Positions 3,478 through 25,856 are shown, counted from the first letter of the stretch. The stretch: DNA of 64,000 nt from Sphingomonas nostoxanthinifaciens (GCF_019930585.1 NZ_CP082839.1:3344001-3408000), one strand, 5' to 3'. Notes: a model not told the origin generated them from the letters alone. Numbers and translations: made by a program.

Positions 3478-3912
3478 TCAGGCCGCCTCGTCGTCGCCGA
3501 TGAGTGAAAGCGTCAGCGCATCGCGCTCGCCACCGAACCAGCGATCGAGCGCGGCGGCGAACAGGGCCTGAGGGCGCGCGGCCTCGAACAAGGTGAGCGA
3601 GGATCGCAGCTTCGTCGCATCGATGCCGCCAAACACCGCGACCGGATCGCTGATCGTCAGATCCTGCAGCGCTTCCACGCACTCGACATAGCGGTGCCCG
3701 AGAATCGGGTGATCGAGATAGGCGCGCGCCTCTTCGAGCGAGCGAATCGCGAAATGGCGCGCCGTGGCGCTTTGGCCAAGCCCGGCGATCTGCGGAAAGA
3801 TGAACCACATCCAATGTGAGCGCTTGGCGCCGCGGCGGATCTCGGCGAGTACCGTGGGATAGGCAAGCGTCTGCGCCTCGACGAAGCGATCGAGAGAATG
3901 GAGGTCGGGCAT
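3478..3912 (-). CDS. DUF1810 family protein
   Basis: A 144-residue protein starting MPDLHSLDRFVEAQTLAYPT, with the family core RGAKRSHWMWFIFPQIAGLG and LGHRYVECVEALQ. DUF1810 proteins are small cytoplasmic proteins, sometimes called calpastatin-like, with no established activity. The ATG overlaps the last base of the upstream SRAP stop (TGATG), so the two are probably translated together. That places it in the LexA-linked SRAP transcript. Confidence 0.85.
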   Translation of the reverse strand: MPDLHSLDRFVEAQTLAYPTVLAEIRRGAKRSHWMWFIFPQIAGLGQSATARHFAIRSLEEARAYLDHPILGHRYVECVEALQDLTISDPVAVFGGIDATKLRSSLTLFEAARPQALFAAALDRWFGGERDALTLSLIGDDEAA

Positions 3913-12068: not shown

Positions 12069-12572
12069 TCAGGCGTCTTCCGCCTGAAGGTTAACGCTCG
12101 TTTCGGCGAGCTTCGTCATAAATTCGTCGCCACCGTAGATTTCCTTGGTGGCATCGCGGAGCTTCTTGTTGTCATCCTTGAGACCAAGAGCCTTCGCATA
12201 GGCCGCAGCGGTACCGAAGCCAGCGATGCCGTAATGCGTCATACGCTGATATTGCGCGATGATGATGACGTCGAGCAGCGGACCCTTCTTCGGTCCTTCC
12301 TCCAGAACATGCTTGGATGCCTCGGTCACGAGACCCTCCATCCCCTTGCAGTGCTCCTTGGAAACCTTCTCGTCCTGTCCGGCGATAAGCTCCTTCAGCA
12401 CATCGGTATGTCTGGCGATGCCGGCCTGCGAATTGGTGAGCATCTCCTTCAAAGCCGGATCGCTTGCCTTCGGGGTGATCTTCTTGAGCGCGCGGCTCAT
12501 CTGGTCATTCGCGGACCAAAGGTCCTTCAGCTCGTCGGTGTAGATTTCCTGCATATCTTCGGGCGTGGACAT
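12069..12572 (-). CDS. YciE/YciF-type ferroxidase-like protein (DUF892)
   Basis: A 167-residue four-helix protein starting MSTPEDMQEIYTDELKDLWS. It has the DUF892 ferritin-like pattern: ELKDLWSANDQMSRALKKI, SQAGIARHTDVLKELI, and AQYQRMTHYGIAGFGTAAAY with conserved Glu/His positions. Family members bind a di-iron or manganese centre and are induced by osmotic and general stress. The ATG at 12572 is favoured over an upstream start at 12614 because of the conserved MSTPxD beginning. It probably shares a promoter with the DUF2252 and ferritin-like genes. Confidence 0.88.
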   Translation of the reverse strand: MSTPEDMQEIYTDELKDLWSANDQMSRALKKITPKASDPALKEMLTNSQAGIARHTDVLKELIAGQDEKVSKEHCKGMEGLVTEASKHVLEEGPKKGPLLDVIIIAQYQRMTHYGIAGFGTAAAYAKALGLKDDNKKLRDATKEIYGGDEFMTKLAETSVNLQAEDA

Positions 12573-12727
12573 GGATGTTCTTTCATGAGGGCAGGACGAC
12601 ATGTTGGGGAACATCGGCCCGCTTGGGAGCGCGCAACGCTAGCGAGCCTTCATCAAACGCGCACCGAGCCGCATCGGCACATGCCGTTCAAAATAAAGCG
12701 ATCGAGCAAAGTCTGCAGATGGTTGCG

Positions 12728-13259: not shown

Positions 13260-15443
13260 TCAGCTCTTTTTGATGGATGCCGCGTCGAGATCGACTGTCA
13301 TCTCGCGAGGCCAGAAGCGCAGCGCGCGGCAAGCAGCGACGAAGGCCTTGGCATCCGCCGGCTTGGCTAGCGGAAGGCAGCCGTCGTCCAGTTCGGGCGG
13401 AACCCGTGCTTCATCGAACAAAGGCTTGGCATTCGCGCCGACACCGATGAACTTGCAGTGCCCAAAGGCATCCGAGACGAAATCCTTCGATGCCCCGTCC
13501 TTAACCAGCATCTGTACGCCGTCAGCCGATGGCAGCACGGCGACGGCATCGAACAGCACCGACGGGCCGCCGTCGATCTTCTGCTTGGCCGCTACCGCCA
13601 TGCCGTCGTCGAGTGTAACACCCCCGATCTTCGGCGCGACGACCTCCCAGACCGCGCCCTCGGCATCGAGCACGTCGGTCAGCGCGGTGAACAGCGCCGC
13701 TTCCGAACCGTCGGTCAGAAAGATGCCCATCTTACGGCCCTTGAAGCTGTCCGGGCCATTGCCGAGAATGCTGAGCGCCGGGGACGGTGGCAGGTCGAGC
13801 GTAGGTCTGGTTGCCTTGGCCGCATCGGGCAGCGCCATGCCGAGCCCGTCCGCGACGGTAGCCGCGAGATCGTCATGGACGTTGCGCAGGTGCGAAACGG
13901 CGCGCGCGCGGATGTCGACCCGCTCCACCTTCGACAGCTCGAACACCAGCGCATCGCCGATATGCTTCTGCTCGATCGGCTGCTGACTGACGAAAAATTG
14001 GCGTGCTTGGCTATAGTGATCGGAGAAGGTCTCCGATCGGATACGCTGCTTGTTCCCTTGCGTCTCCGCCGGGAAGCTGACGAAGCCCGCCTCGGGATTC
14101 TCGCGCGGTCCTCCCTCGGCGCCCCAGCTATTGGGCTCGTAGTTGACGCGCCCGATGGGGTTGCGCATCGCCATGTGCCCGTCCTGTTGGAAATTCATCA
14201 CCGGGCAGCGTGGTGCGTTCACGGGAATGTGCGTGAAGTTCGGCCCGCCCAGACGCTTCAGCTGCGTATCGAGGTAGGAGAAGTTCCGGCCGTGCAGCAG
14301 CGGATCGTCGGAGAAGTCGACGCCCGGCGGCACGTTCGCGGTGCAGAAGGCGACCTGCTCGGTGCTTGCAAAGAAATTGTCGACGTTGCGGTTGAGCGTC
14401 ATCGTGCCGATGATCCGAACCGGGATGTCTTCCTCAGGTATCAGCTTGGTCGCATCGAGATGATCGAAGGGCAGCTTGTCCGCAGTCTCCTGATCAAACA
14501 GCTGAACGCCCAAATCCCATTGCGGGAAATCGCCACTCTCGATCGCCTGCCACAGATCGCGGCGGTGGAAATCGGGGTCGGCGCCGTTGATCTTGACCGC
14601 CTCGTTCCACGCCACCGACTGCAGGCCCTGGCGCGGCTTCCAGTGGAATTTGACGAAGGTCGATTTGCCCTCCGCATTGACCAGACGGAAGCTATGGACG
14701 CCGAAGCCCTCGATCGTGCGGAACGAGCGCGGGATCGCGCGATCGGACATGATCCACATGATCATGTGCCACGCCTCGGGCGAGAGGCTGGCGAAGTCCC
14801 AGAAGTTATCGTGGGCGGTTTGCGCCTGGGGAAAGCCGCGATCGGGCTCATCCTTCACCGCATGGACGAGGTCTGGGAACTTGATCGCGTCCTGGATGAA
14901 GAAGACCGGGATGTTGTTGCCGACGATGTCCCAATTGCCCTGCTTGGTGTAGAGCTTCACCGAAAATCCGCGCACGTCGCGCGCAAGATCGGATGAGCCC
15001 TTGTTGCCGGCGACGGTGGAGAAGCGGACGAACACCTCGGTTTGCTGGCCGACGGTGCTCAGCACGTCGGCGCGGGTGTATTCTGCTAAGCTGTCAGTAA
15101 GTTCGAACACGCCATGCGCGCCGTAACCGCGCGCATGCACGACGCGTTCAGGGATGCGTTCATGATCGAAGTGGAATATCTTTTCGCGGAGAATGAAGTC
15201 TTCCAGCAAGGTCGGACCGCGCGGACCGGCCTTGAGGCTGTTCTGGGCATCCGCGACTGGAACGCCTTGCTGCGTCGTCATCGTCAGCGCCGCATCGGCC
15301 GTGCTCTGATGTGTTTCGCCGCCAGAACCCTGCGGTTCTGCGAAGCTTGTAGGGAGATCGCTGCCAGGCGGAAGCGGCGGCACCTTGATCGGCGACTCGC
15401 CCTTTAACTTCCCAGAATTCGCTTTAGTGCTGCTCTTCGCCAC
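13260..15443 (-). CDS. katE: Large-subunit catalase (KatE/HPII type)
   Basis: A 727-residue monofunctional haem catalase. The catalytic His is in [12 protein letters not shown] (His103), the distal Asn in [20 protein letters not shown], and the proximal haem Tyr in [17 protein letters not shown]. The C-terminal 150 residues form the flavodoxin/DJ-1-like domain typical of the large-subunit clade ([19 protein letters not shown]). It disproportionates hydrogen peroxide in the cytoplasm. The gene is alone in its transcript after an AT-rich upstream region in which I see no perfect EcfG site. It fits the neighbouring ferritin-like stress genes. Confidence 0.95.
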
Positions 15444-15898
15444 GCGTCATTCTCCATTTGCTGCAGAGATGGACGACTGAGCCAGCCACCCCCAGCGATT
15501 TATATTTTAAGGGTTACGGAACAACTAGGCGTCAGTGCTAAATGAAGAATGGAATTCGTCTTATTGATACATATCAATTTCTTTTGAGCCTATTTGCACT
15601 ATTGAGGTCTGCTGCGTATCAAGGCCTTACGTGGCACAAAGATTTTTGGCACAGCTTTACCGAGTTGCCAGCGCGCACCGGCTTTTCCCAATTTGGCGCT
15701 AGCCAACCATTTCGATGGCCGAGCGTTAGTACCCCAAGAATTCACCTGACGATCTACCACATAGGCCACCGAATTTCCGCAGGGATCCAGACCGATTGAA
15801 CTCGCCAAAACGAGCGGGAATCTTCCCGGCGAGGCAGCTCGATACTTCCACCTCCGCCTCGTGTGGCGGAAACCGTCCACTCCGCAAGGTGAAAGTCA
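15444..15898. other. AT-richer divergent intergenic region
   Basis: About 455 bases between the catalase and glycosyltransferase starts. It is lower in GC than its surroundings around 15500-15610 and must hold the divergent promoters. A frame at 15542-15799 has no family resemblance and no ribosome binding site, and I do not call it a gene. Confidence 0.5.
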
Positions 15899-16906
15899 CT
15901 GCAACAGATCGCCATTTGCGTTCCCGCTCGTAATGAAGCTGACGAGCTGCCGAACCTGTTCGGAGCTTTGGAGCTGCTCGAGACCACGCGGCACCAAAAA
16001 ATAACGATTTGCTTGCTCCTCGACGCCTGTACCGACGACAGCGTCGCACTAGCCGCAAGCTATCGGGCGCGATCCCGTCATCAAATCGACATCGCCGACG
16101 CGATCTCGGTGAACGCTAACGCCGGACGCGCGCGCCATCGTGCGATGGCAATGGGCCAGGCCGCCTTGTCGGCCCGCGATGGCTTGCTTTTGACTACCGA
16201 CTCAGACACGGCGCCCGCGAGAGATTGGTTGCGCGTAATGGTCTCGGCGCTCGCAGGGTCAGACGTCGTCGCAGGCCGCATCAAACGGCAAAGTGTGCGG
16301 CCGAGCCAGCTGCAAGATCGCCTCGAATTTTATTACGACGAGCTGTTTGCCCTGCGCCGCCGACTCGACCCGGTATCCTGGGAGGCAAATCGCACACACC
16401 ATTTCTGCGGCGGCGCCAACCTGGGGATACGTCTTCGAGCCTATGAAATGCTTGGAGGCTTCACCCCTGTGCCAAGCGGTGAAGATGCCAAGCTCGTCGA
16501 TGATGCGTCCCGCGCCGGGCTGCGCGTCCGACGCGATGCGGCCAGCGTGGTTTATACCTCGGACCGGCGTGAAGGTCGGGCGACCGGCGGACTCGCTTCG
16601 GCGCTACGCGAGCTTGATGAGGGAGCTGCGGCGAACATCGAGGTGACGCACCCAGCCGATGCGGCGTGGCAATATGCGATGCAGGCCATTGCTCGGGCGG
16701 CCTATGATGACGAGAGGCCAGCATCGCTTGAGGCTGCTCTCGGCTTCACACGAGATCATGTGCGCGGCGTGCGGCGAGATTGTCCGAATGCGGAAGCGTT
16801 CGCGATGCGCATCGTGCCGGAAGCCCCGGCTGGCATGCGCAGCGTGTCGTTGCCTACAGCCGAGGTCGAACTGGCGCGAATTATTGGATTGCGAGAAGCG
16901 GCATGA
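15899..16906 (+). CDS. Family 2 glycosyltransferase, first gene of a Nod-like operon
   Basis: A GT-A fold transferase of about 335 residues. The N-terminal strand QQIAICVPARNEADELPNLF continues with the nucleotide-sugar motif LLTTDSDTAP (DxD-like) and acceptor-region HHFCGGANLGIR and GEDAKLVDD. No ATG precedes this strand; the best start is CTG at 15899, with AAGGTG ending 7 bases upstream. A GTG in another frame at 15889 would need a one-base shift, so an N-terminal frameshift is the alternative. It overlaps the next gene by ATGA. The substrate is unknown; it probably transfers a sugar onto a cytoplasmic or membrane acceptor. Confidence 0.82.
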   Translation: MQQIAICVPARNEADELPNLFGALELLETTRHQKITICLLLDACTDDSVALAASYRARSRHQIDIADAISVNANAGRARHRAMAMGQAALSARDGLLLTTDSDTAPARDWLRVMVSALAGSDVVAGRIKRQSVRPSQLQDRLEFYYDELFALRRRLDPVSWEANRTHHFCGGANLGIRLRAYEMLGGFTPVPSGEDAKLVDDASRAGLRVRRDAASVVYTSDRREGRATGGLASALRELDEGAAANIEVTHPADAAWQYAMQAIARAAYDDERPASLEAALGFTRDHVRGVRRDCPNAEAFAMRIVPEAPAGMRSVSLPTAEVELARIIGLREAA

Positions 16907-17877
16907 TCGACTTGCGCGCTGCCATCGTCGAACGGGGCGCGCAACTTGCATCTGCGAAAGACCCGACCAGCCCCGGTGACCTGCTGTCGCTGCTCCGTCT
17001 GCTCTATGAGACGGGGCGGGAGGATCTTCCGCTTGGTAGCCTTTTTGAGGGCCACGTCGATGCAGTTCAGATCGTCACCCGTTATGGGACGCAGGCGCAG
17101 CGAAACACGCTAAGCAAAGCCCTAGCTTCGCATAGCGCGTTAGGTGTCTGGAACGCGGAGTTGTCGGGTGAACCTCTGCTGCTGAGAAATGGGCAACTGA
17201 CCGGTGGTAAGAGTTTTGCTTCCGGCGCAGGGATCCTGTCACATGCGCTCGTCACCGCTGAACACGAGGGAGGGCGCCAGCTGATCCTGCTCGATCTGGC
17301 TAAGGCCCCGCCGGTGATCGATCGCACCTTCTGGCGGGTCGTCGGTATGCAAAGATCGGAAACGCATATCGTCCGCTGGCAAGACGTTTCGGTATCGCCC
17401 GACGCTTTGATCGGGATGCCTGGCGATTATGTCCGGGAACCTTGGTTCAGTGGAGGTGCGCTCCGTTTCACGGCTGTTCAGGCCGGCGGCATCGCCGCGC
17501 TTCTTGACGGTACCCGCGATCATCTCACCGCCGTGGGTCGATCCGGGGACCCGCATCAGTCCGGTCGGCTGGCGGCGCTGTTTGCACTCGCGCAGGCCGC
17601 CTCCAGCGCAGTACGGGCAGCAGCATCGGCTTGGTTCCTGAGCGAGACAACGAGGTTGCCAATGGTCGCGGCCGCCCGCGATGCGGTCTACCAAGCCGGA
17701 GGGGAGGCGTTGCGGATCGCCCAGGAGGCGGTAGGTGCTCAAGCGCTGTTCGTCGACCACCCGCTATCGGCAACGATAGCCGATCTTTCCATGTATCTGC
17801 GCCAGCCCGCGCCCGATATGCAGCGCATGAACGTTGGGGCGGCGGTTGCCGCAGGAACGCTAAGGGCTGCTCTTTGA
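16903..17877 (+). CDS. Acyl-CoA dehydrogenase-like protein
   Basis: A 324-residue protein, shorter than classical acyl-CoA dehydrogenases (about 380). It has the middle-domain pattern LGVWNAELSGEPL, SFASGAGILSHALV and FWRVVGMQRSETHIV, and a C-terminal helical domain (FALAQAASSAVRAAASAWFL, AVYQAGGEALRIAQEAVGAQ). The usual catalytic Glu position is not clear. The start ATG overlaps the glycosyltransferase stop, and the stop overlaps the deacetylase start by TTGA. It may act on an acyl or amine group of the operon's product rather than in fatty-acid breakdown. Confidence 0.8.
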   Translation: MIDLRAAIVERGAQLASAKDPTSPGDLLSLLRLLYETGREDLPLGSLFEGHVDAVQIVTRYGTQAQRNTLSKALASHSALGVWNAELSGEPLLLRNGQLTGGKSFASGAGILSHALVTAEHEGGRQLILLDLAKAPPVIDRTFWRVVGMQRSETHIVRWQDVSVSPDALIGMPGDYVREPWFSGGALRFTAVQAGGIAALLDGTRDHLTAVGRSGDPHQSGRLAALFALAQAASSAVRAAASAWFLSETTRLPMVAAARDAVYQAGGEALRIAQEAVGAQALFVDHPLSATIADLSMYLRQPAPDMQRMNVGAAVAAGTLRAAL

Positions 17878-18524
17878 GGCTGCACATCAGCCTTACGCGG
17901 ACCCTGCTCGTGATCGCCCCTCATCCCGATGACGAGACCATCGGTGCTTTCGGTCTGATGGCGCGGATGCGTCGTCGCGGCGCGAACGTACGCGTCGTCG
18001 TAGTCTCCGACGGGGCCGGATCGCATCGAGACAGCCGGTCTTGGCCAAGCGCGAGGCTGATTAGGGAGCGTCGCCGCGAAACGCGCAATGCTGCCCGACG
18101 GATCGGCGTATATGCGCCCGCCTTGACCTTCTTGGAGCTGCCGGACGGTGGATTGGCTGAGGCGCTGAGTAACGTGACGCGGCTCGTCGGGCGCGAAGTG
18201 CGCCGTGCGCCAAAGCCTCTGCTGGTGATCTCGCCCGCGCCGACTGACGATCATCCCGATCACCGCGCGGTGGCCATGTGCGTAGCAACCCTGCGCGTGG
18301 CGGGTGTCAGGCGGCTGGCCTACCCGGTGTGGCCCGCCGGCTCCGGCCTCCGGTTTGCCCGGACGTTTATGTTGACCGCTCGCGAGCGCTTCGCCAAGCG
18401 CAGCGCCATCCGCAATTACCGCACGCAGACCGGCCGGATCGTCGACGATCCGTTGGGATTTGCGATGTCGCCCACGCAGATCGCAGCCTTCGCTCGGCCC
18501 GCCGAGACGTTCGTCGCCTTCTGA
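17874..18524 (+). CDS. PIG-L family (LmbE-like) deacetylase
   Basis: A protein of about 216 residues starting at TTG 17874, inside the previous stop. The zinc-binding signature VIAPHPDDETIGAFGLMARM and the second motif APTDDHPDHRAVA are intact, so the enzyme should be active. The family removes N-acetyl groups from GlcNAc-containing glycolipids or pseudo-disaccharides. Placed after a glycosyltransferase and before a methyltransferase, it likely exposes an amine for later modification. The methyltransferase ATG shares its last base. Confidence 0.88.
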   Translation: MRLHISLTRTLLVIAPHPDDETIGAFGLMARMRRRGANVRVVVVSDGAGSHRDSRSWPSARLIRERRRETRNAARRIGVYAPALTFLELPDGGLAEALSNVTRLVGREVRRAPKPLLVISPAPTDDHPDHRAVAMCVATLRVAGVRRLAYPVWPAGSGLRFARTFMLTARERFAKRSAIRNYRTQTGRIVDDPLGFAMSPTQIAAFARPAETFVAF

Positions 18525-19141
18525 TGCGTCCAATTACTCTCGCGGGCTTTGCGGCCAAGTTCGACGCCGACAGCGATCCTTGGCGAACTTTCGACGATCC
18601 TGACGAAGCCCTCAAGCGGCAAGCGATCCTTCATGCGATGGGACCGGGCCCTTGGGGGCGTGTTCTCGAACTTGCCGCGGGAAATGGGTCTAACAGTGCG
18701 GCGATAGCCCCGCGAGCGCTCCGCCTCGATGCAACCGAGGCCACGTCGAGCGGAACTGCTCTGGTCGCCAAAGCCATCCGGTCCCGCTCGCCCCGCGCGC
18801 GTGCCATCAGGCTCGCGGTTCCAGCCCACCTGCCACGTCAGCGTTACGACATCATCGTGGTTGCGGAACTTCTCTATTACCTGGCGCCCTTGGCGATGCG
18901 CCGAACTGCTCAGGATGCGGCGGCGGCCCTGAAGCATCGGGGCTTCCTGGTACTCGCACACCACCGCATCGACTTTCCAGATTTCGCCCAACACGCTGCG
19001 CGGATACAGCAGCGCTTTCTCAAGGCCACGGGACGCGACTGGGTTGTTCGCGAAGTCCGTCGGAATTGCCACTGGTCGGTGCTGGCTTGCAGCCCGCGCC
19101 GCCGCCGCTCCCCGCGTCCCCGACCAGGTCGGCCTTCCTGA
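18524..19141 (+). CDS. Class I SAM-dependent methyltransferase (NodS-like context)
   Basis: A 205-residue protein starting MRPITLAGFAAKFDADSDPW, with the SAM-binding loop RVLELAAGNGSNSAAIA and the strand DIIVVAELLYYL. The small size, N-terminal PW motif and position after a PIG-L deacetylase resemble NodS-type N-methyltransferases that act on a deacetylated amino sugar. That substrate is inferred. TGATG coupling to the deacetylase fixes the start. The C-terminal tail is Arg/Pro-rich (PRRRRSPRPRPGR). It is the last gene of the four-gene operon. Confidence 0.85.
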   Translation: MRPITLAGFAAKFDADSDPWRTFDDPDEALKRQAILHAMGPGPWGRVLELAAGNGSNSAAIAPRALRLDATEATSSGTALVAKAIRSRSPRARAIRLAVPAHLPRQRYDIIVVAELLYYLAPLAMRRTAQDAAAALKHRGFLVLAHHRIDFPDFAQHAARIQQRFLKATGRDWVVREVRRNCHWSVLACSPRRRRSPRPRPGRPS

Positions 19142-21541: not shown

Positions 21542-22365
21542 AGCGGCGCTCCCGCCTGGCTTGACGCGGCCGGCTTCTGGCGGCGCTTCGGTTTGTCGGC
21601 AAGCTCGATCCACACCGGCGCGTGGTCGCTGGTTTTCTCCCAGCCCCGCACATGGCGATCGACCTGCGCATCGACGAGGCGGTCGGCCAGTGCGGGACTC
21701 AACAGAAGGTGATCGATGCGCAAGCCCGCGTTGCGGGCGTAGGCGTTCCGGAAATAGTCGAAGAAGGTGTAGATGACCTCGCCCGGATGGATCGTCCGGA
21801 GCGCGTCGGTCCATCCCTGATCCAGCAGCCTGAAATATGCCGCTTTCACCTCGGGCGCGAACAGCGCATCGTCGAGCCAGCGCTCGGGTTTGTAGACGTC
21901 GAGATCGGTCGGCATGACGTTGAAGTCGCCGGCGAGCATCACCGGCAAACCCGTTTCGAGCAAGCCGGCCGCATGCTCGATCAGCCGCTCGAACCATTTG
22001 AGCTTGTAATCGAACTTCGGGCCGGGCCGCGGATTGCCGTTGGGCAGATAGAGGCCCCCGATCAGGATGCCGTTGATCGCCGCCTCGATGTAGCGGCTAT
22101 GGCTGTCGTTCGGATCGCCCGGCAAGCCGCGACGTGTCTCATGGATTTCGCCGACCTGGCTCAGGATGGCGACGCCGTTCCCGCTTTTCTGACCATGCCA
22201 GATCGCGTCATAGCCAAGATCGCGAATCGCGGTCTCGGGAAACTTCTCCTGCGGCGCCTTCAGCTCCTGCAGGCAGACGATGTCGGGCTGCTCCTCCTCC
22301 AGCCAGCGCAGCAGCACCGGCAGGCGGCCATTCACGCCGTTCACATTGTAGGTGGCGATCTTCAC
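21538..22365 (-). CDS. xth: Exonuclease III (Xth family AP endonuclease)
   Basis: A 275-residue enzyme starting VKIATYNVNGVNGRL from a GTG at 22365 that overlaps the LigD stop. Motifs of the EEP fold are intact: Glu in CLQELKAPQEKFP, GGLYLPNGNPRPG, GDFNVMPTDLDVY and the catalytic SDHAPV. It cleaves at abasic sites and trims 3' ends in base excision repair. Coupling to LigD is frequent in bacteria with an end-joining ligase. Confidence 0.93.
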   Translation of the reverse strand: MKIATYNVNGVNGRLPVLLRWLEEEQPDIVCLQELKAPQEKFPETAIRDLGYDAIWHGQKSGNGVAILSQVGEIHETRRGLPGDPNDSHSRYIEAAINGILIGGLYLPNGNPRPGPKFDYKLKWFERLIEHAAGLLETGLPVMLAGDFNVMPTDLDVYKPERWLDDALFAPEVKAAYFRLLDQGWTDALRTIHPGEVIYTFFDYFRNAYARNAGLRIDHLLLSPALADRLVDAQVDRHVRGWEKTSDHAPVWIELADKPKRRQKPAASSQAGAPL

Positions 22366-24250
22366 AGGTCGGGCAACGTCTGGTCGGCGCGACCCCAGCC
22401 GGCGAGCGCCTTGGAGCCCGCGCGCTTCACCAGCTCGGCGGCATCGCCAACGTGCCAGTGGGCTGGCGTGTCGATCGTCTCCATTTCCTTCCACGTAATC
22501 GGCGCCGCGACTGGCGCGCCCGATCGCGCGCGGACGCTGTAAGGCATCACCGCCGTCGCGCCGCGCTGGTTGCGCAGATAATCTACGAAGATGCGGCCCT
22601 TGCGCTGTACCTTGGGCAAGGCAGCCGTGAAATTGGCGGGATCGCTTTGCGCGACGGCTTGCGCGAGTCGATGCGCGAAGCTCTTCACCTCGGGCCATTC
22701 GGCGCGCGGCACCAACGGCGCGATGACATGGATGCCCTTGCCGCCGGTGACCATCGGAAAGGTCTCCAGCCCGATCGACTGGAGATGTCGCGGAAGTGGA
22801 ACGCCGCCTTGCGCACCGCCTCGAAGTCGAGGCCCTCGTCAGGATCGAGGTCGAACACCAGCCGGTCTGCCTTTTCGACATCCTCGATGCGCGCGCCCCA
22901 GCCATGAAACTCGATCGTTCCCATCTGGACGCAGGTCAGCAGCCCCTCGGGTGTATCGACGTAGAGATAGGGCTCCGTGTGCCCGTCCTTCTCCAGAATG
23001 CCGACCTGGCGGACGGCGTCCCCGAACATGCCGGCGTCATGCTTCTGGAAGAAGCACTTCTTGGCGCGGCCCTGCGGGCAGCGCACCAGGCTGATCGGGC
23101 GGCTGCCGGCCCAAGGCAGCATGACCGCGGCGACGGCATTATAGTGGTCGGCGAGCTGGCCCTTGGTGACGCCGGTGTCGGGATCGATGATCCGGTCGGG
23201 ATTGCTGATCTTGACCGACGATGCCGCCGGCGCGGCGGCTTCCTCGACCGGCTTTTCACTTTCGAGCACCACGGCTTCGGGCTTCTTGTCCTCGCGCAGG
23301 CCAAGATAGCTCGGATGCCGGAGCGTGCCCTCGTTGGTCATCTCGGTATAGGCGATTTCGGCGACGAGCGCCGGCCGCAGCCAGTGCGCGCCGCGGACCT
23401 CGGCGCGCGGCGCCTTCACGGTCGCGACAGTCTGCTCGAGTGGCTGCATGATCTCCATCAGGCGATGCAGTTCGGCGGTGTTGAAGCCGGTCCCGACCTT
23501 TCCAGCATAGCGAAGCTCGCTCTTCTCATGGACGCCAAGGATCAGCGAACGGAATGACCGCGACTTGTCGGAGGGGGTCCAGCCCACGATCACGAATTCC
23601 TGGCGCTTGATGCATTTGGTCTTGAGCCAGCCGCCCGACCGCGAGCCGACATATTTGCCCGTGGCGAGCTTGGAGATGACGCCTTCGAGGCCGACGGCGC
23701 AGAACTGGTTTAGCAGCTTCTCGCCGTTGCCGACGATATGCTCGGAGTAGCGCATTCGGCTGCTCGCCTTGGGCAGGATGTGCTCGAGCTTCTCCTTGCG
23801 CTCGGTGAGCGGCAACTTGGTCAGGTCCTCGCCGTCGAGTTCGAGGAGGTCGAACGCGTAATAGTCGATCGTGCCAGGTGCGCCTTTGAGTGCGCCCTGC
23901 AGCGCCTGGAAGCTCGATCGGCCGTCGCCGTCGAGCACGACGGCCTCTCCGTCGATCAGCGCCGACCCGACTTTCAGTCTAGCGGCTGCCGTGACGACGT
24001 CGGCGAAGCGATCCGACCAGTCGAGGCCCGAGCGCGTATAGGCGCGCGCCTCGCCGCCGCCGACCGCGATCAGGACCCGGTAGCCATCATATTTCATTTC
24101 ATGAAGCCAGCGATCCCCGGTGGGCACCGTGTCGACGAGCGTGGCGAGCTGGACCGAGCGGAAGGGCGGCGGTTTCAGAGCGGATACGGGTGCGCGACGC
24201 CCTGGCTTGTCGCCCGTGCGGGATTTGGCGGGCGTGGCGGCGCGCGCCAC
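22362..24250 (-). pseudogene. ligD: LigD ATP-dependent DNA ligase/polymerase, disrupted by a one-base frameshift
   Basis: The N-terminal part (24250 to about 22790) is an ATP-dependent ligase with the catalytic Lys in LHEMKYDGYRVLIAV, then the start of the primase-polymerase domain (ISLVRCPQGRAKKCFFQKH, GTIEFHGWGARIEDVEKADR). The frame is lost at about 22787: minus-strand GACATCTCC should read GACCATCTCC. Homology resumes in another frame (MVTGGKGIHVIAPL, to LPDL). A single C deletion explains this, so it is a recent mutation or a sequencing error. The PE nuclease domain is absent, and no Ku gene is nearby. The ligase part could still be made. Confidence 0.85.
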
Positions 24251-24577: not shown

Positions 24578-25543
24578 CTACGCGGGAGGCTCGCCGCCAC
24601 CCGGTCGGCTGGCCGTCGCGATCCGGCCGGTCAGGGTCCGCCGCAGATTGACGGCGGCGGTCTTGCGGCCGTTCCAGGCCGGATCGATCTCCGCCGCTTC
24701 GCTGACCCTGCCGATCAGAACCGGGAGCAAGGCGAGCTTCGCCGAGCCGTCCGCGGTATGCGTCACGACCTGCGTCGCATCGTCGATCGCCTTGGCCCGG
24801 CGGTTCGGAAGCTCGAGTCCGCGCACCGTCACCGCGACGCCGGTGACGACGCGCGGCTGATTGGGCACGAAAACCTTGTTCTTATGCGCGCGCAGCCGGT
24901 GACGGCCAACGATTTGGCGCGCCGCCTGCTGCATCGACCGGCTGGCAAACCGACCGCTGATCGTCATGTCGTCGACATAGAGAGTGAACGCGCAACTTTT
25001 GGCCACGGCCAGTTCAGCGATCTCGTCGAACATCGGCTTGTAGGCCCAGAAGGACAGGATGCAGCTTGCATTGCCGCCGGTCGGCAGATGCCCGCCGATC
25101 GTCAGCAGCCGCGTCATCCGGCTCGCGACATCGGCGGGATACTCCATCAGCTCGTGGAAGAAGCTGTAGACGGCCGCCGCGCGCACCGATGGAAAGAACT
25201 TCTTGATGTCGAGCTTGACCGCGCTGTCCTTAGCGCCGTGCTGCGACGCGTTAGTGACATAGGATCGCTGCCGCACCCCCGAATGCAGATAGTCGGGCGT
25301 CTCAATCTGCTGGAGCAGCTTGGCCACCCGGGCATGCACCTGCTTGAGCAACGCCTTGGGCTCCTCGATCAGCCGGCCGGTCTTGCGGTCGGTGCGCACG
25401 AGGTAGTTCGCTTCCGCGTTGCGGACGAGATAGGCAAGCTGGCCCGGCGAGATGCACAGGATGTGGGCCAGCCGCGCCGGCGAGGTCAGCTTGAACAGCG
25501 CGCTGCCACGTAGGCTAACGCGCTTGGCGCACCTTCTCGCCAT
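24578..25543 (-). CDS. Retron-type reverse transcriptase
   Basis: A protein of about 321 residues. Retron-specific marks are present together: NAxxH in SYVTNASQHGAKD before KLDIKKFFPSV, the catalytic YVDDMTIS, and VTG in RVVTGVAVTVRG. LPTGGNASCILSFWAY is the central template motif, with an unusual GGNAS. The enzyme would copy part of a structured RNA into multicopy single-stranded DNA. The ATG at 25543 is preferred because AAGGGG lies 6 bases upstream; the reading frame overlaps the HTH gene. Retrons are antiphage tripartite systems, and neighbours here are defence genes. Confidence 0.9.
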   Translation of the reverse strand: MARRCAKRVSLRGSALFKLTSPARLAHILCISPGQLAYLVRNAEANYLVRTDRKTGRLIEEPKALLKQVHARVAKLLQQIETPDYLHSGVRQRSYVTNASQHGAKDSAVKLDIKKFFPSVRAAAVYSFFHELMEYPADVASRMTRLLTIGGHLPTGGNASCILSFWAYKPMFDEIAELAVAKSCAFTLYVDDMTISGRFASRSMQQAARQIVGRHRLRAHKNKVFVPNQPRVVTGVAVTVRGLELPNRRAKAIDDATQVVTHTADGSAKLALLPVLIGRVSEAAEIDPAWNGRKTAAVNLRRTLTGRIATASRPGGGEPPA

Positions 25544-25856
25544 GCCGGTCCCCTTCATCGGGATCGTCGGCTGTTACCGTCGCGATCCAATCCAACATCT
25601 TCACGACCTTGCCGGCCACCGCGGTACGAACCCGGTCAGCAGCCGGCGCCCCGTCCGCCTGCTCGGCGAAGAACATCAGCGACGACACCGGAATGTTGAA
25701 GCCGTCGGCGTATTTCTGAAGCACCTCGATGGTGACCTTCTTGTCACCCCGTTCCAGCTCCGTGATGTAAGACTTAGACAGGCCGACGCGCTCAGCGACC
25801 TGGGTCTTGTTCAGGTCGTGAAACACGCGCACCAGTCTAAGGGCTTCATTCAACAT
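25515..25856 (-). CDS. XRE-family HTH protein of the retron operon
   Basis: A 113-residue protein. Residues about 5-60 form a Cro/CI helix-turn-helix (LNKTQVAERVGLSKSYITEL, ERGDKKVTIEVLQKYADGF). A retron with a small HTH partner resembles the type VI arrangement of published retron classifications. It may repress the operon or act as effector or antitoxin. AAGGAGG lies about 12 bases before the ATG. Its 3' end overlaps the reverse transcriptase gene by 29 bases. Confidence 0.88.
   Translation of the reverse strand: MLNEALRLVRVFHDLNKTQVAERVGLSKSYITELERGDKKVTIEVLQKYADGFNIPVSSLMFFAEQADGAPAADRVRTAVAGKVVKMLDWIATVTADDPDEGDRHGEKVRQAR

What the first reader, a model, noticed from the sequence alone, without database searches (positions are those of the whole stretch)
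15899..19141. Nod-factor-like biosynthetic logic in a compact four-gene operon
A family 2 glycosyltransferase, an acyl-CoA-dehydrogenase-like protein, a PIG-L deacetylase and a small SAM methyltransferase are joined by ATGA, TTGA and TGATG overlaps. The functional order (build sugar chain, deacetylate, N-methylate, act on an acyl or amine group) parallels NodC-NodB-NodS, but the families used are different and no nodulation genes are present. The product could be an unknown modified glycolipid or aminosugar.
Basis: partly seen in the sequence, partly recalled or inferred. Interest (0 to 1): 0.72.

Follow-up and report, generated by a model that had tools for sequence, protein, structure and literature searches.

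The report
Conserved stress-island aminosugar operon, product unknown
Four tightly overlapping bacterial genes that travel together across several phyla, often beside catalase and other stress genes, look like a small pathway that adds a sugar, strips its acetyl group, methylates the freed amine and oxidises the product, but nobody has yet identified the molecule they make.

Summary
Window 15899-19141 carries a GT2 glycosyltransferase, an acyl-CoA-dehydrogenase-fold flavoprotein, a PIG-L deacetylase and a small SAM methyltransferase, joined by 4-nt overlaps. The block is a real, widely conserved unit. The host genome holds three copies. All four genes lie together in 68 of 75 loci examined (alpha-, beta-, gammaproteobacteria, Nostoc, actinomycetes; Deinococcus has three of the four), and their divergences track each other (r 0.92-0.96). 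A published A. baumannii transcriptome lists the four as one operon, falling together with trehalose synthesis and catalase. Catalase and DUF892 genes lie nearby far more often than expected.

The Nod-factor analogy is half right. The methyltransferase is a real NodS relative. The deacetylase's closest characterised relatives include diacetylchitobiose deacetylases, which perform a NodB-like reaction. However, the glycosyltransferase is soluble and lacks the QxxRW motif, so it should add single sugars. No acyltransferase is present, and the "acyl-CoA dehydrogenase" is closest to flavin monooxygenases (DszC, MsuC, nitrososynthases).

Best reading: biosynthesis of a small, soluble N-methylated, possibly N-oxygenated, aminosugar glycoside made under stress. 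Product and substrates are inferred, not shown. I found no paper assigning a function.

The parts
15899..16906 (+). GT: soluble family-2 (GT-A fold) glycosyltransferase, 335 aa, probable CTG start
   Evidence: Pfam PF00535 2.3e-9; nearest NCBIfam MftF and TIGR04283, far below cut-off; AF2 pLDDT 92.7; no TM segment, no QxxRW
16199..16207 (+). GT metal-binding DxD motif (DSD, residues 101-103; invariant D101/D103)
   Evidence: alignment A4
16903..17877 (+). AC: acyl-CoA-dehydrogenase-fold flavoprotein, 324 aa, monooxygenase-like subfamily
   Evidence: AF2 pLDDT 92.7; Foldseek/VIA-align to ACADs, DszC, KijD3; profile best hit DszC 2.8e-16
17874..18524 (+). PL: PIG-L (CE14-type) zinc N-deacetylase, 216 aa, TTG start
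   Evidence: PF02585 4.3e-28; profile hits TT1542, diacetylchitobiose deacetylase, BshB, MshB
17922..17936 (+). PIG-L motif HPDDE (zinc ligands and general base)
   Evidence: H, D, D, E invariant in alignment A2
18252..18263 (+). PIG-L motif HPDH; the second His (residue 130, third zinc ligand) is invariant, the first nearly so
   Evidence: alignment A2
18524..19141 (+). MT: NodS-like class I SAM methyltransferase, 205 aa
   Evidence: NCBIfam NodS 4.6e-8 (below cut-off); PDB NodS 3ofj 8.6e-8 single sequence, 4.3e-24 with profile
18575..18583 (+). DPW signature shared by this family and NodS
   Evidence: invariant in A3; aligned to NodS DPW
13260..15443 (-). KatE-type large catalase, divergent neighbour (context, not part of the operon)
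   Evidence: PF00199; catalase near cassettes 6 observed vs 0.62 expected
12069..12614 (-). DUF892 (YciF-like) stress protein neighbour (context)
   Evidence: PF05974; DUF892 near cassettes 5 observed vs 0.25 expected

Best explanation
The block is a conserved biosynthetic operon for a small, soluble aminosugar glycoside produced as part of the stress response. Proposed steps: (1) GT adds one sugar, probably GlcNAc from UDP-GlcNAc, to an unknown acceptor; (2) PL removes the N-acetyl group; (3) MT methylates the freed amine with SAM, as NodS does; (4) AC, a flavoenzyme of ACAD fold nearest to class D monooxygenases, oxidises the product, most likely at the methylated amine. Shown here: gene content, overlap, conservation as a unit, predicted folds, intact catalytic motifs, and association with stress genes. 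From a paper: operon assignment and co-regulation in A. baumannii. Inferred: every substrate, the order of steps 3 and 4, N-oxygenation rather than another oxidation, and the protective role.
For: Unit: 42/44 relatives with identical order; 68/75 loci hold all four genes, 75/75 hold MT near AC, 71 PL, 70 GT; pairwise distance correlations 0.92-0.96; -4 overlaps conserved; three copies in the host genome. Operon: ACICU_02432-02435 = GT, SAM-MTase, LmbE (PIG-L), ACAD-related, marked as one operon, all 31- to 62-fold down together with otsA/otsB and catalase (PMC5660220). Chemistry: MT nearest N-methyltransferases, NodS 4.3e-24 and phosphoethanolamine N-MTs 3e-14; PL nearest GlcNAc-type deacetylases with all zinc residues; AC nearest DszC 2.8e-16, methanesulfinate monooxygenase, nitrososynthases DnmZ 1.1e-8 and KijD3 1e-7; GT soluble, top Foldseek hit the GlcNAc transferase TarS. 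Stress context: catalase P=5e-5, DUF892 P=6e-6; Ku/LigD beside the B. japonicum copy; catalase, PA2169-type protein and GlgE beside the Cupriavidus copy.
Against: No substrate is known; PIG-L and class I MTase families are broad. The AC link to monooxygenases is a profile match, and true ACADs also match (isobutyryl-CoA dehydrogenase 1.3e-10). GT donor and acceptor cannot be read from sequence. The published EcfG stress promoter motif is not generally found upstream of the block (4 of 49 loci, one of them inflated by a mis-set gene start). Distance correlations include shared species history. The A. baumannii expression data come from colistin-dependent mutants, not a direct stress test. Some loci lack PL or GT nearby.
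Confidence: 0.45

Rival explanations
1. The operon decorates a lipid- or polymer-linked glycan (LPS core, exopolysaccharide or glycolipid) rather than making a free small molecule: GT adds an amino sugar to the glycan, PL and MT modify it, AC oxidises it.
For: Some copies sit with several more glycosyltransferases: the 1.283 Mb copy L015, L053, L057, L100, L104, L108. S. melonis Fr1 has an EcfG-dependent cluster of five glycosyltransferase/EPS genes (#3505-3509; PMC6599016), although I could not link it to this cassette.
Against: The minimal window copy and most Sphingomonas copies have only the four genes; no gene of the block has a transmembrane segment; no flippase or polymerase was seen in the block.
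Confidence: 0.3
2. It makes a redox cofactor or low-molecular-weight thiol related to mycothiol or bacillithiol, with PL in the MshB/BshB role.
For: PL hits BshB1 (4.4e-16) and MshB; stress and catalase context; PIG-L plus a GT is the opening logic of both thiol pathways.
Against: The GT is GT2, not the GT4 of MshA/BshA; PL is far below the BshB/MshB cut-offs (59 vs 182.5 bits); no cysteine ligase is conserved in the block; an MTase and a flavoprotein are not part of either pathway.
Confidence: 0.1
3. A Nod-factor-like lipochitooligosaccharide pathway: chain building, deacetylation, N-methylation, acyl attachment or modification.
For: NodS homology of MT; PL related to chitobiose deacetylases.
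Against: GT is not a membrane processive synthase and lacks QxxRW; no NodB-type CE4 gene or acyltransferase in the block; NodA not found in the genome (control silent); present in Deinococcus, Nostoc, Acinetobacter and Pseudomonas-like genomes.
Confidence: 0.05
4. AC is a true acyl-CoA or acyl-carrier dehydrogenase (like ColB1 or FkbI) that supplies an unsaturated or hydroxylated acyl or aminoacyl group to the sugar.
For: Structural alignment is as good with ACADs and ColB1 as with monooxygenases (Z about 30-31 for all).
Against: Profile comparison ranks DszC/TdsC/MsuC first; no acyltransferase, CoA ligase or carrier protein is conserved in the block; Pfam ACAD cut-offs are not reached by the window protein.
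Confidence: 0.1

Closest known systems
Nod factor biosynthesis NodC-NodB-NodS (with NodA)
   Same: Deacetylate-then-N-methylate logic; MT is a NodS relative with the same DPW signature
   Different: GT soluble and without the processive motif; PIG-L instead of CE4 NodB; no NodA; extra ACAD-fold flavoprotein; stress context
Mycothiol/bacillithiol MshA-MshB and BshA-BshB
   Same: Glycosyltransferase followed by a PIG-L deacetylase freeing a glucosamine amine
   Different: GT2 not GT4; no Cys ligase; MTase and flavoprotein added; scores far below family cut-offs
ACAD-fold flavin monooxygenases: DszC/TdsC, MsuC, amino-sugar nitrososynthases KijD3, DnmZ, ORF36
   Same: Fold and best profile matches of AC
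   Different: AC of the window subfamily is shorter (324 aa), about 20% identical, and sits with PIG-L and NodS-like genes; oxygenase activity untested
A. baumannii ACICU_02432-02435, the blsA-neighbour cluster (PMC5660220, PMC6240043, PMC9948694)
   Same: Same four families in one operon
   Different: Order AC-PL-MT-GT instead of GT-AC-PL-MT; reported only as neighbours or expression entries, no function assigned

Membership tests
Nod factor (LCO) biosynthesis | NodC: membrane-embedded processive GT2 with QxxRW | tested here: not met
   No QxxRW and no TM segment in the window GT; no QxxRW in 16 relatives
Nod factor (LCO) biosynthesis | NodB: CE4 polysaccharide deacetylase in the operon | tested here: not met
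   The deacetylase of the block is PIG-L PF02585; the rest of the genome was not searched for CE4
Nod factor (LCO) biosynthesis | NodA acyltransferase in the genome | tested here: inconclusive
   PF02474: no match in the genome, but the control genomes were silent too
NodS methyltransferase (equivalog) | NF041650 score above 300 bits | tested here: not met
   33 bits; relatives in Acinetobacter and Nostoc 70-72 bits
NodS-like superfamily (Pfam PF05401) | Homology to NodS over the MTase domain | tested here: met
   13 of 16 family members hit PF05401 at E<=1e-3; a Pseudomonas-like member scores 51.8 against a cut-off of 24; profile vs NodS structure 4.3e-24. The window protein alone is below the cut-off (17.2)
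PIG-L/LmbE zinc deacetylase | HPDDE and HxxH zinc and base residues, PF02585 above cut-off | tested here: met
   98.8 bits vs 28.2; motifs conserved, zinc residues invariant
Acyl-CoA dehydrogenase family | Pfam ACAD domains above gathering score | tested here: not met
   Window AC 16.1 and 15 bits, below 33.3 and 22.9
Acyl-CoA dehydrogenase family | ACAD fold | tested here: met
   AF2 model, VIA-align Z about 30-31, rmsd 2.6-3.2 over 303-317 residues
Class D flavin monooxygenase / nitrososynthase | Reduced flavin and O2-dependent oxygenation | not testable with these tools
   Only profile and fold similarity
Mycothiol/bacillithiol pathway | GT4 MshA/BshA and a cysteine ligase beside PIG-L | tested here: not met
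   GT is GT2; no such conserved gene in the block. Absence elsewhere in the genome not tested

The most novel reading that the evidence does not exclude
An undescribed class of stress metabolite, an N-methylated and N-oxygenated aminosugar glycoside, is made by a dedicated cassette shared by Sphingomonas, Pseudomonas-like and Burkholderia-like bacteria, Acinetobacter, Deinococcus, Nostoc and actinomycetes, and contributes to drying or oxidative tolerance much as trehalose or ergothioneine does.
Probability: 0.3. Interest if true: 0.82.

Novelty: new variant of a known kind. Interest (0 to 1): 0.6.

Why it matters
A four-enzyme set conserved across phyla and often placed among catalase, Ku/LigD, DUF892 and trehalose genes implies a shared metabolite that standard annotation hides under four generic names. 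NodS-like genes in this cassette get automated 'nodulation' terms; the context offers a more likely role. In A. baumannii the operon falls with otsAB and catalase, so it may be part of stress survival there. The block is compact enough for heterologous expression and mass spectrometry.

Tried and rejected
EcfG control: searched for GGAAC-N17-20-GTT (S. melonis motif, PMC6599016) upstream of 49 GT genes; 4 hits, two of them close relatives and one (L026) an artefact of a mis-set start; none in the window. Direct EcfG control of the window copy was therefore not claimed. The four genes as an accidental cluster: rejected. NodC-like chain synthesis: rejected. My first gene caller picked antisense shadow ORFs in this high-GC DNA, so later work used homology-selected ORFs. 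The Acinetobacter locus L117 was matched to ACICU_02432-02435 by gene families, order and the BOF/BlsA neighbours, not by accession. NodA search gave nothing but its control was silent. A motif search for the GT ribosome-binding site used the wrong spacing and says nothing.

Full report
OBSERVATION. Pfam gives Glycos_transf_2 (2.3e-9), only sub-threshold ACAD domains, PIG-L (4.3e-28) and generic methyltransferase domains plus NodS at 0.0048. The GT frame contains no ATG/GTG/TTG before its conserved IAICVPARNE start; the frame opens after TGA at 15890, and CTG 15899, 7 nt behind AAGGTG, is the likely start.

CONSERVATION. The window lies in a 4.30 Mb single-contig genome (G000) whose closest block relatives are Sphingomonas. 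This genome carries three complete copies: the window, 2.676 Mb (AC 62% identical, MT 60%) and 1.283 Mb (AC 38%, MT 25%). A scan of genome contigs with AC found 44 loci; 42 (mostly Sphingomonas, plus Salinisphaera, Sulfitobacter, Notoacmeibacter, Aurantimonas and a Caulobacteraceae MAG) have GT-AC-PL-MT in that order, mostly with -4 overlaps. A profile search of 398 Pseudomonadota genomes found AC at E<=1e-40 in 34; the remaining matches, E 1e-16 to 1e-19, are taken to be ordinary ACADs. Nearly all of those inspected have PL and MT directly beside AC. Over 75 loci: MT in 75, PL in 71, GT in 70, all four in 68; pairwise distance correlations between the four families are 0.92-0.96. The correlations include shared species history, but each of the three host copies keeps much the same nearest loci across the four families. 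Order is GT-AC-PL-MT in Sphingomonas and AC-PL-MT-GT in most beta/gamma loci and in actinomycetes. Plasmid-collection hits add Deinococcus radiodurans, Nostoc, Bradyrhizobium japonicum, Cupriavidus and Acinetobacter baumannii; Deinococcus lacks a nearby GT, and Cupriavidus keeps a PIG-L gene beside the catalase, a few kb away.

ENZYMES. GT: AF2 pLDDT 92.7, soluble GT-A fold; best Foldseek hit TarS, a GlcNAc transferase; VIA-align best WrtF fucosyltransferase Z 22.6, rmsd 2.1, 176 residues. No transmembrane segment in the window GT, and no QxxRW in it or 16 relatives, so it does not resemble NodC. PL: zinc residues invariant; solved relatives TT1542, diacetylchitobiose deacetylases, BshB, MshB. 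MT: solved relatives 4isc (1.2e-40), NodS (4.3e-24), phosphoethanolamine N-methyltransferases (3e-14), an N-methylation bias. AC: AF2 pLDDT 92.7, full ACAD fold (Z about 30-31); the profile ranks DszC (2.8e-16), TdsC and methanesulfinate monooxygenase ahead of most true ACADs, with nitrososynthases DnmZ (1.1e-8) and KijD3 (1e-7) also found. Structure alone does not separate monooxygenase from dehydrogenase.

CONTEXT. In the window the block stands beside a large catalase and a DUF892 gene, with HSP20 and LigD further on. In 37 genomes with the cassette, catalase lies within 12 kb of 6 cassettes (0.62 expected), DUF892 of 5 (0.25) and Ku of 2 (0.2). These expectations assume random placement and independent genomes, so the P values are rough. 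The B. japonicum copy is followed by Ku and LigD; the Cupriavidus copy has catalase, a PA2169-type protein and GlgE nearby; a Pseudomonas-like copy (L094) follows GlgX-type amylases. The EcfG motif is not generally present upstream.

LITERATURE. PMC5660220 Table 2 lists ACICU_02432-02435 (glycosyltransferase, SAM methyltransferase, LmbE, ACAD-related) as one operon, 31- to 62-fold down in colistin-dependent mutants together with otsA/otsB and catalase. PMC6240043 and PMC9948694 mention the same genes only as neighbours of the light sensor blsA; L117 shows that locus. PMC6599016 reports an EcfG-dependent glycosyltransferase cluster in S. melonis, which I could not tie to this block. I found no paper naming a function.

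MECHANISM. Proposed: GT adds one N-acetylaminosugar to an unknown acceptor; PL deacetylates; MT N-methylates; AC oxidises, perhaps at the methylated amine. The families and motifs are shown; substrates, order and protective role are inference. Rivals are glycan decoration (most serious), a thiol-like cofactor, acyl-CoA chemistry, and a true Nod-factor pathway (least likely).

VERDICT. A real, widely conserved, functionally unassigned biosynthetic cassette. The Nod analogy is apt for deacetylation plus N-methylation and wrong for chain building and acylation.

Noticed in passing
window 24581-25856 (- strand): A reverse transcriptase (PADLOC RT_VI, 4.4e-79) with an upstream HTH protein (HTH_VI, 1.1e-32): a type VI retron, a candidate anti-phage system. 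Its ncRNA was not sought.
   Followed up: partly
window 22365-24250 (- strand): The ligD gene is split by a frameshift within its Prim-Pol domain: 22688-24250 matches PF21686 positions 1-136 and 22365-22754 matches 140-251. Either a pseudogene or a sequencing error.
   Followed up: partly
L116 5546-7885 (Deinococcus radiodurans): The AC homolog is fused to an N-terminal stretch of about 420 aa without a Pfam hit that reads like a glycoside-hydrolase TIM barrel.
   Followed up: no
L015 (host genome 1.275-1.291 Mb), L053, L057, L100, L104, L108: An extended form of the cassette with several further glycosyltransferases, including a sucrose-phosphate-synthase/phosphatase-like protein in L053, and DUF892 and Crp-type genes in some.
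   Followed up: partly
L117 11103-12099 and L119 2598-3029: BLUF light-sensor genes near the cassette in both Acinetobacter baumannii (blsA) and Bradyrhizobium japonicum.
   Followed up: no
window 15899: The GT gene seems to start at CTG, rare in bacteria; relatives use ATG, GTG or TTG.
   Followed up: partly
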